The notes under the pieces: generated by a model
Seen by the model: only the letters and a program-made list of their open reading frames with translations
Told to the model about the DNA's origin: nothing
Database searches by the model: none
From: Pichia kudriavzevii
Lineage: Eukaryota; Ascomycota; Pichiomycetes; Pichiales; Pichiaceae
Length of the DNA: 64,000 nt
Direction: 5' to 3'
Assembly (NCBI RefSeq): GCF_003054445.1
Contig: NC_042506.1
Coordinates: 2,487,501-2,551,500 of the forward strand
Translations under genes and position numbers: made by a program
Shown here: positions 39,407 through 40,231 of the stretch, one piece after another
How positions within the stretch are numbered: position 1 is the first letter of the stretch
Layout: the number at the start of each line of letters is the position of its first letter

Positions 39407-40231
39407 TTACATAATAACGCAACAGCCACCTTCACCGCCACTTTTTGCACCAGTACCAGTACCAGTGCCGTTGGAATCTGCTTGAACATTCCTTGGAGGG
39501 TTTGAGCTGGCTTTATTGGAGTACTCTTTCTGAGAATTATTTATATTTGATGGATTTTGGGTTGAAGTGCCTTGATTTTCGTCTTGATGAATCTCTTGAA
39601 CGGAGTGACTCTTATTTGAGGACTCCTGTTGCTTTGCCCTTAGTTGTTCTTTTGCTTGTATTTCCTCTTCTTCAGAAGGATACAGGGTTTTCTCCAAACC
39701 AACGCCTAAAAGACCACCACGCATAACCATCTTAACAACACCATGGAATGCCTCCACAACGTTATCACCTGTCTTGGCAGATGTTTCAATGTATGCACAA
39801 TCAAACTTCTTTGCAAGTTGAACAGCTTCTTCACGTGACACTTGTCTTTCCTCCACCAAATCGTTCTTGTTACCAACTAGCATCATAGGAACAAACTCCA
39901 CAGTTTCCCCCTTAACTCTCAGAATTTGATTGTAGAAAGTGGAAATTTCTTCAAAGGTTTGTCTGTCTGTCAATGAAAAAACCAGTAAAAACCCTTCACC
40001 GGTCTTCATATATAAATCTCTCATTGACGAGTATTCTTCCTGTCCTGCTGTATCTAGTATATCAAGCGAGGCTGGAATATCATCAATTGTGCAATAGTAT
40101 CTATAGGAGTCTTCAATGGTGGGGTCGTATTCATTGGCAAAATCGCTTTGCGTGAGCCTAATGGTCAACGCAGATTTACCTACAACCGGTGGACCTACCA
40201 CAACAAGTCTAAATTCTTTGGATGCAGACAT
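39407..40231 (-). CDS. RAS1: Ras GTPase with divergent P-loop
   Basis: A 274-residue Ras GTPase. Switch I (YDPTIEDSY), switch II (DTAGQEEYSSMRDLYMK, keeping the Gln61 equivalent), NKND and ETSAK are canonical, and the protein ends CCVIM, a CAAX box with a preceding palmitoylation-type Cys. The P-loop is VVVGPPVVGKSAL instead of GGGGVGKS or GAGGVGKS: residues equivalent to Ras 11, 12 and 13 are Pro, Pro, Val. The codons (GGT CCA CCG GTT GTA GGT AAA) are unambiguous. Yeast Ras activates adenylate cyclase and MAPK pathways. It may be the main RAS or a divergent second paralogue (Candida has a divergent RAS2); the numbering of the symbol is uncertain. The region from ~180 on is a hydrophilic linker. 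Confidence 0.85.
   Translation of the reverse strand: MSASKEFRLVVVGPPVVGKSALTIRLTQSDFANEYDPTIEDSYRYYCTIDDIPASLDILDTAGQEEYSSMRDLYMKTGEGFLLVFSLTDRQTFEEISTFYNQILRVKGETVEFVPMMLVGNKNDLVEERQVSREEAVQLAKKFDCAYIETSAKTGDNVVEAFHGVVKMVMRGGLLGVGLEKTLYPSEEEEIQAKEQLRAKQQESSNKSHSVQEIHQDENQGTSTQNPSNINNSQKEYSNKASSNPPRNVQADSNGTGTGTGAKSGGEGGCCVIM

What the first reader, a model, noticed from the sequence alone, without database searches (positions are those of the whole stretch)
39995..40231. RAS protein with a Pro-Pro-Val P-loop
The RAS gene encodes VVVGPPVVGKSAL, so the equivalents of Ras residues 11-13 (normally Ala/Gly-Gly-Gly) are Pro-Pro-Val, while switch I, switch II with Gln61, NKxD, SAK and the CAAX box are canonical. 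Established biochemistry: Gly12 and Gly13 are nearly invariant, most substitutions activate Ras, and Pro at 12 is the known near-neutral exception. A natural Ras carrying both Pro12 and Val13 could have shifted GTPase or GAP dependence. Several codon changes are needed, so a single sequencing error is unlikely.
Basis: partly seen in the sequence, partly recalled or inferred. Interest (0 to 1): 0.82.

Follow-up and report, generated by a model that had tools for sequence, protein, structure and literature searches.

The report
Yeast Ras lacking Gly12 and Gly13
The one classical Ras gene found in this yeast (Pichia kudriavzevii) has two prolines and a valine where the other Ras proteins compared have the glycines that are cancer hot spots in people, and its relatives in two orders of yeasts share the prolines, which offers a natural test of how this switch is turned off.

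Summary
RAS at 39407-40231 (-) reads VVVGPPVVGKSAL: Ras residues 11-13 are Pro-Pro-Val, with the other G motifs and the CAAX box canonical. It is not an error and not private to this strain. Of 187 Ras sequences collected (186 database proteins, human HRAS), 42 have Pro11-Pro12 with Val, Ser or Ala at 13; 135 others all have Gly12 and Gly13; 10 could not be scored. The 17 named species among the 42 belong to Pichiales or Alaninales. The Pro-Pro set is one side of a branch with P-loop columns removed (99/90). The genome search found no second RAS1/2-type gene; the nearest paralogue, RSR1-like, is canonical. RasGEFs, an adenylate cyclase with an RA domain and an IRA-like RasGAP are present; the IRA arginine finger is invariant in 16 of 16 homologues found. 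Best reading: a working, still IRA-regulated Ras whose P-loop was rebuilt once. GAP action on Pro12 Ras is inferred, not shown. Ten literature searches listed no description. New variant of a known family, directly testable.

The parts
39407..40231 (-). RAS gene (the only RAS1/RAS2-type gene found in this genome), 274 aa, one open frame
   Evidence: ORF; Pfam Ras PF00071 E 8.4e-53; best hit Pichia kudriavzevii 99%; genome searches
40172..40195 (-). P-loop (G1): G10 P11 P12 V13 V14 G15 K16 S17
   Evidence: codons listed
40184..40192 (-). codons for Ras residues 11-13: CCA CCG GTT = Pro-Pro-Val
   Evidence: homologue counts
40157..40159 (-). Arg at Ras position 22 (Gln in 133 of 135 non-Pro-Pro sequences)
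40103..40129 (-). switch I / effector loop YDPTIEDSY (G2, Thr35)
39995..40054 (-). switch II DTAGQEEYSSMRDLYMKTGE (G3, Gln61; Ser66, Leu70, Lys73 differ from the usual Ala, Gln, Arg)
39860..39871 (-). NKND (G4)
39773..39781 (-). SAK (G5)
39410..39421 (-). CAAX box CVIM, preceded by a cysteine
23585..24349 (-). RSR1/BUD1-like Ras-family GTPase with canonical GAGGVGKS, the nearest paralogue (40% identity); not part of the RAS gene, shown as contrast

Best explanation
This is a functional Ras whose phosphate-binding loop was rebuilt once, before Alaninales and Pichiales diverged, from GGGGVGKS to GPP[V/S/A]VGKS, and kept since. I think it still works as a GTP/GDP switch on adenylate cyclase: GEFs load it, Gln61 and the Pro12 loop give competent hydrolysis, and IRA still switches it off with its arginine finger. 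Shown here: the sequence, its fixation in the clade as sampled, a single RAS1/2-type gene in this genome, pathway genes present, the IRA finger conserved. Inferred: that Pro12 was tolerated because it is the replacement at 12 that does not activate human Ras, that changes elsewhere (Ser66, and in most of the clade Arg22, Leu70, Lys73) accompany it as compensation, that IRA still acts on it, and that cyclase is its effector.
For: Pro11-Pro12 in 42 sequences and Gly12/Gly13 in all 135 others scored of 187. One side of a branch with P-loop residues 10-17 removed, support 99/90, 100% of 200 bootstrap trees. Gln61, Tyr32, Thr35, DTAGQ and SAK kept in 42 of 42, Lys16 in 41 of 42. No second RAS1/2-type gene among 27 Ras-family matches of the genome; RAS is the only one of the 27 with Pro at position 12. 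RasGEFs, three RasGAP-domain genes and a cyclase with an RA domain are present. IRA 'EI[LM]RSNT' finger and 'LFLR..NP' motif present in 16 of 16 homologues found, aligned with the neurofibromin 'LFRGNS' finger. Ogataea polymorpha ira1 deletion lowered growth on xylose at 45-47 C and at low pH, and IRA1 overexpression slowed growth (PMC12280177, passages). G12P HRAS is non-transforming unless overexpressed (PMC6813200, passages) and still hydrolyses GTP (PMC6662853, passages). With both GAP and GEF present, substitutions at 12 and 13 of HRAS were not strongly activating (PMC5538825, passages). The AlphaFold2 model has the Ras fold (pLDDT 85.9, pTM 0.85).
Against: PMC6662853 states that G12P HRAS cannot bind GAP because the proline ring points outward; if that holds here, IRA could not act in the standard way. 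Arg22 and Val13 would be expected to activate: PMC5538825 reports strong gain of function for changes at 12 and 13 with GAP alone or with neither regulator, and PMC6813200 reports KRAS Q22K as the most GTP-loaded of a set. I found no biochemistry for this protein. The IRA1 phenotype is from O. polymorpha, whose own Ras model in the database (P0040) starts inside the P-loop and could not be read; its sibling O. angusta (P0026) shows GPPVVGKS. In that study growth on glucose at 28, 37 and 45 C did not differ notably, and the passages I saw give no Ras-GTP or cAMP measurement. The 16 IRA homologues include only Pichia and Brettanomyces among the named ones, so nothing is known here for Komagataella or Alaninales IRA.
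Confidence: 0.6

Rival explanations
1. A self-timed Ras: Pro12 blocks the arginine finger, intrinsic hydrolysis is raised, and the switch is timed by GEF and intrinsic GTPase; IRA acts on RSR1 or by another route.
For: G12P HRAS is described as hydrolysing GTP without GAP and unable to bind it (PMC6662853, passages). Pro12 is normal in another GTPase class: the MnmE/MSS1-like gene of this genome has GPPNAGKS.
Against: The IRA finger and FLR motif are kept in 16 of 16 homologues found, which argues for continued catalytic use. RSR1 probably has its own GAP, a BUD2-like RasGAP gene (name inferred from size and finger). Loss of O. polymorpha IRA1 matters in vivo.
Confidence: 0.22
2. A partly activated Ras: Val13 and Arg22 raise GTP loading, tolerated because PKA signalling was retuned downstream in this clade.
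For: Changes at 13 (without GEF) and Q22K activate human Ras. Ras evolves faster in this clade: mean tree distance from HRAS 1.63 against 0.97 for the others.
Against: An extra ira1 deletion still gives a phenotype in O. polymorpha, so Ras there is not already saturated with GTP, if IRA1 acts on Ras. Position 13 is Ser in 3 Komagataella and Ala in 2 Alaninales-type sequences, and Komagataella keeps Gln22, so neither Val13 nor Arg22 is required.
Confidence: 0.1
3. The gene is not the vertical orthologue of other yeast RAS but an ancient paralogue or a transferred gene that replaced it.
For: In the gene tree the clade does not sit with the Serinales-type rows and has a long stem.
Against: Its placement is weakly supported (90/77). 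Holding it together with 15 Serinales-type rows (4 named Candida, 11 unnamed assigned from the tree) is not rejected (p-AU 0.452; the group was chosen after seeing the tree). The distribution fits two orders of one class by NCBI taxonomy.
Confidence: 0.06
4. Sequencing or assembly artefact.
For: None found.
Against: Same P-loop in a separate P. kudriavzevii record; Pro11-Pro12 in 41 further homologues.
Confidence: 0.01

Closest known systems
Fungal RAS1/RAS2 (Saccharomyces, Candida) and human H/K/N-RAS
   Same: Whole G domain, switch I, Gln61, NKxD, SAK, CAAX; 55-62% identity to the non-Pro-Pro Ras in the 39-row alignment
   Different: Gly/Ala11-Gly12-Gly13 replaced by Pro-Pro-Val; Gln22, Lys42, Gln43, Ala66, Gln70, Arg73 also replaced in most of the clade
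Engineered HRAS G12P (PDB 1JAH, as cited in PMC6662853)
   Same: Pro at 12; reported to keep intrinsic hydrolysis and not to transform cells
   Different: Laboratory single mutant; keeps Ala11 and Gly13. The natural protein adds Pro11 and Val13 and many other differences
MnmE/MSS1-type GTPases (P-loop GPPNAGKS in this genome); the wider Era/Obg class is recalled, not tested
   Same: Pro at the Ras-12 equivalent, and in this gene also at 11
   Different: Different GTPase family with TrmE_N and MnmE helical domains; its potassium-dependent catalysis is recalled knowledge and is not implied for RAS
RSR1/BUD1-like gene in the same window
   Same: Ras-family GTPase, next best match in the genome
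   Different: Canonical GAGGVGKS; 40% identity

Membership tests
Ras family (RAS1/RAS2-type) | Pfam Ras domain with G1 GxxxxGK[ST] | tested here: met
   PF00071 E 8.4e-53; GPPVVGKS
Ras family (RAS1/RAS2-type) | Effector loop YDPTIEDSY with Thr35 | tested here: met
   present in this RAS; in the clade YDPTIEDSY 41 of 42 and YDPTIEDTY 1 of 42, Thr35 42 of 42
Ras family (RAS1/RAS2-type) | DTAGQ with Gln61, NKxD, SAK | tested here: met
   present in this RAS; 42 of 42 of the clade for each
Ras family (RAS1/RAS2-type) | C-terminal CAAX box | tested here: met
   CVIM; prenylation itself not testable here
Ras family (RAS1/RAS2-type) | Gly12 and Gly13 (near-invariant in the subfamily, though not in the Ras superfamily) | tested here: not met
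   Pro12, Val13; the 135 other sequences scored have Gly at both. This is the variation under study; other small GTPases of the same genome also lack Gly at one or both places, so I do not treat it as defining
Ras family (RAS1/RAS2-type) | Closer to Ras than to the RSR1 paralogue | tested here: met
   55-62% identity to other Ras against 40% to RSR1-like; best PDB matches by sequence and fold are R-Ras2, choanoflagellate Ras and K-Ras. The tree has a single RSR1 row on a long branch and decides nothing on this point
Ras family (RAS1/RAS2-type) | GTP/GDP switching, GAP stimulation, cyclase activation | not testable with these tools
   needs biochemistry
MnmE-type GTPase | TrmE_N and MnmE helical domains beside the G domain | tested here: not met
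   Pfam scan of RAS shows Ras, Roc, Arf and MMR_HSR1 matches over the G domain only

The most novel reading that the evidence does not exclude
Two orders of budding yeasts (Pichiales and Alaninales) run their only classical Ras with no glycine at 12 or 13, and have a co-evolved Ras-IRA pair in which the arginine finger works past a proline at 12, or hydrolysis is achieved in a different geometry. That would break the rule that RasGAP catalysis needs Gly12.
Probability: 0.4. Interest if true: 0.88.

Novelty: new variant of a known kind. Interest (0 to 1): 0.72.

Why it matters
Gly12 and Gly13 are the classic oncogenic positions, and human Ras with only its GAP to restrain it is activated by changes there (PMC5538825). 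Here both glycines were replaced and the change was kept in methylotrophic, brewing and spoilage yeasts, including Komagataella phaffii (Pichia pastoris). How a Ras without Gly12 stays switchable, and whether a RasGAP can act on it, bears directly on why G12 mutants resist GAP and whether that can be overcome. It also warns that 'G12V-equivalent' reasoning does not carry over to RAS in these industrial yeasts.

Tried and rejected
Sequencing error: rejected. A hidden canonical RAS elsewhere in the genome: not found in six-frame searches that are blind to introns. Loss of the RasGAP, which would have explained loss of Gly12 simply: rejected for this genome, an IRA-like gene is present with its finger. 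Horizontal transfer or hidden paralogy: not supported, not fully excluded. A wider look at Pro12 in the MMR_HSR1 family of the genome (PF01926) did not complete; one MnmE-like gene was met by chance instead. IRA from outside the Pro-Pro clade could not be fetched (3 of 3 protein searches used), so clade-specific changes in IRA were not tested. Contacts of positions 22, 43, 66, 70, 73 with GAP or GEF are recalled, not computed. The AlphaFold model has low confidence in the stretches that hold most of switch I and the start of switch II (block means 54 and 55) and says nothing about catalysis. PMC8916776 was searched for proline, G12P and Gln 22 and held none of these.

Full report
What is there. 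The ORF at 39407-40231 on the minus strand encodes a 274-residue Ras protein. Its P-loop is VVVGPPVVGKSAL, and the codons for Ras positions 10-17 are GGT CCA CCG GTT GTA GGT AAA TCT. Positions 11, 12 and 13 are thus Pro, Pro and Val. Switch I, DTAGQ with Gln61, NKND, SAK and a CVIM box are all in place. The finding's coordinates cover only the first 79 codons of the gene.

Where it is. The best database match is Pichia kudriavzevii at 99%; it differs from the window at residues 202 and 234 only. The window lies in a 10.79 Mb genome of 5 contigs. A six-frame search with this protein (19 matches) and one with the Pfam Ras family (27 matches) found one RAS1/2-type gene. The next match to the protein is an RSR1-like GTPase inside the same window (23585-24349, minus) with canonical GAGGVGKS at 40% identity. 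Among the 27 Ras-family matches, RAS is the only one with proline at position 12. The searches ignore introns, so a gene cut into very short exons could be missed.

How widespread it is. Two protein searches listed the best 120 of 4298 and the best 120 of 5191 matches. The 186 different proteins and human HRAS, typed as reference, give 187 sequences. Of these, 6 lack the P-loop (fragments) and 4 are fused, misaligned or unreadable models, leaving 177. Pro11-Pro12 occurs in 42: GPPVVGKS in 36, GPPVVGYS in 1, GPPSVGKS in 3 (Komagataella), GPPAVGKS in 2 (Pachysolen and an unnamed relative). The other 135 have Gly12 in 135 and Gly13 in 135; position 11 there is Gly 127, Asp 4, Ala 3, Pro 1. Seventeen named species stand behind the 42: Pichia kudriavzevii, P. 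californica, P. inconspicua, Brettanomyces nanus, B. naardenensis, B. bruxellensis, Martiniozyma asiatica, Ogataea angusta, O. philodendri, Ambrosiozyma monospora, Candida boidinii, C. arabinofermentans, Kuraishia capsulata, Pachysolen tannophilus, Komagataella kurtzmanii, K. phaffii and K. pastoris. Ten of the 17 were looked up in the NCBI taxonomy: nine are Pichiales and Pachysolen is Alaninales, both in class Pichiomycetes; the other seven are placed by their genus names. One further named species, Ogataea polymorpha (P0040), has a gene model that reads MTPAVMVGKS at its start and looks out of frame at its end, so I treat it as unreadable, not as an exception. Candida maltosa, with GGGG, is Serinales in the same class. 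The listing holds the nearest relatives only and is not a survey of all Ras.

One origin. In a tree of 113 Ras rows plus RSR1, the 32 Pro-Pro rows form one side of a branch, 99/97. With Ras residues 10-17 removed and 112 rows the support is 99/90, in 100% of 200 bootstrap trees; the bootstrap had not fully settled there. The clade has a long stem, and its mean distance from HRAS is 1.63 against 0.97 for the other rows. It does not sit with the Serinales-type rows in the tree (nearest branch 90/77), but holding it together with 15 of them is not rejected (p-AU 0.452; 4 of the 15 are named Candida, 11 were assigned from the tree, and the group was chosen after the tree was seen). Vertical descent with faster evolution is thus compatible with the data, not proven.

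What changed with it. Ser66 is found in 42 of 42 (Ala in 134 of 135 others). Arg22 is in 39 of 42 (Gln in 133 of 135 others; the 3 Komagataella sequences keep Gln). Lys42, Gln43, Gln70 and Arg73 are also mostly replaced in the clade. I recall that several of these lie on the GEF-facing side of Ras; that was not computed here. Gln61, Tyr32, Thr35 and SAK are unchanged in 42 of 42.

The pathway. Three genes with a RasGAP domain exist: a long IRA-like ORF, an 853-residue ORF that I take for BUD2, and an IQGAP-like ORF with IQ and CH domains. The IRA-like protein matches neurofibromin best among solved structures, and the arginine of 'EILRSNT' aligns with that of the neurofibromin finger 'LFRGNS'. 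In 16 of 16 IRA homologues found (Pichia and Brettanomyces among the named ones) this arginine and the 'LFLR..NP' motif are present; a first regular-expression scan had missed the second motif in 7 of 16 because neighbouring residues vary. Of four RasGEF-domain matches, the three strongest have the RasGEF N-terminal motif, one of them with an SH3 domain as I recall for Cdc25. An adenylate cyclase with leucine-rich repeats, a PP2C domain and an RA-type domain is present. So the parts of the classical Ras-cAMP circuit are there around an unusual Ras.

What is known of such changes. PMC6813200 (passages) reports that HRAS G12P, like wild type, did not transform cells or give growth in soft agar while the other codon-12 variants did, that overexpressed wild type or G12P does transform, and that KRAS Q22K gave the highest GTP loading of a set of four. 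PMC6662853 (abstract and passages) says G12P HRAS cannot bind GAP but hydrolyses GTP itself; it is a simulation study citing earlier work. PMC5538825 (passages) reports strong gain of function for changes at 12 and 13 with GAP and no GEF or with neither, but no strong activation when both are present. PMC12280177 (passages) shows that in Ogataea polymorpha deleting IRA1 raised growth on xylose at 28 and 37 C, cut it at 45-47 C and at low pH, left growth on glucose much the same up to 45 C, and that overexpression impaired growth. This suggests that a RasGAP still matters in a Pro-Pro genus, though the substrate was not shown to be RAS.

Mechanism. Pro12 is the codon-12 replacement reported not to transform. 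The same genome has another GTPase, an MnmE/MSS1-like one, with GPPNAGKS, so a Pro-Pro P-loop is compatible with a GTPase. The step from Gly to Pro takes two base changes per codon, and the single-step intermediates at codon 12 would be Ala or Arg (Ala is among the transforming variants in PMC6813200; Arg is recalled as activating). The change may therefore have passed through a double change or a time when Ras control was relaxed; this is inference. Since the IRA finger has been kept, I think IRA still acts on this Ras, which would mean that the GAP-Ras interface adjusted to Pro12. It could be wrong; the self-timed rival has about a fifth of my confidence.

Is it in print? Searches of the held library for Ras with Pichia and P-loop, G12P, Ogataea Ras, Komagataella RAS, saturation mutagenesis, P-loop orthologues, the literal strings GPPVVGKS, GPPSVGKSAL and GPPAVGKSAL (0 papers), Pichiales genera with RAS2, P. 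kudriavzevii with RAS and IRA2 and naturally occurring Gly12 changes listed no paper whose title or abstract start describes it. I saw listings only, except for the papers named above, and several searches listed a part of their hits. The library lacks most subscription journals, so this is not proof of absence.

Verdict. It is a new variant of a known family.

Noticed in passing
window 23585-24349 (-): RSR1/BUD1-like gene in the same window; the open frame has no ATG before DYKLVV (it reads FYLHNADYKLVV), so a short first exon and an intron upstream are likely.
   Followed up: partly
P0033 (groups with Brettanomyces bruxellensis P0024): P-loop reads GPPVVGYS, with Tyr in place of the P-loop Lys16; cluster of 4 member sequences. 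An error or a dead copy.
   Followed up: no
L032, minus strand, positions 3-884: MnmE/MSS1-like gene (TrmE_N, MnmE_helical) with P-loop GPPNAGKS, next to a small GTPase gene with a Rho-like GDGACGKT P-loop.
   Followed up: partly
P0040 (Ogataea polymorpha OGATHE_003958): Public Ras gene model begins inside the P-loop and looks out of frame at its end; probably misannotated.
   Followed up: no
P0192 (Pichia californica): A 2912-residue RasGAP-domain protein (IRA homologue) carries the name 'mitotic spindle checkpoint protein Bub3' in the database; probably misnamed.
   Followed up: no
P0137: A distant Ras-like protein from a eukaryote transcriptome set has Pro at 11 only (GPGGVGKS), on a very long branch.
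   Followed up: no
window 40157-40159 (Ras position 22): Arg22 in 39 of 42 Pro-Pro Ras; human Q22K is activating, so this second unusual residue deserves its own test.
   Followed up: partly
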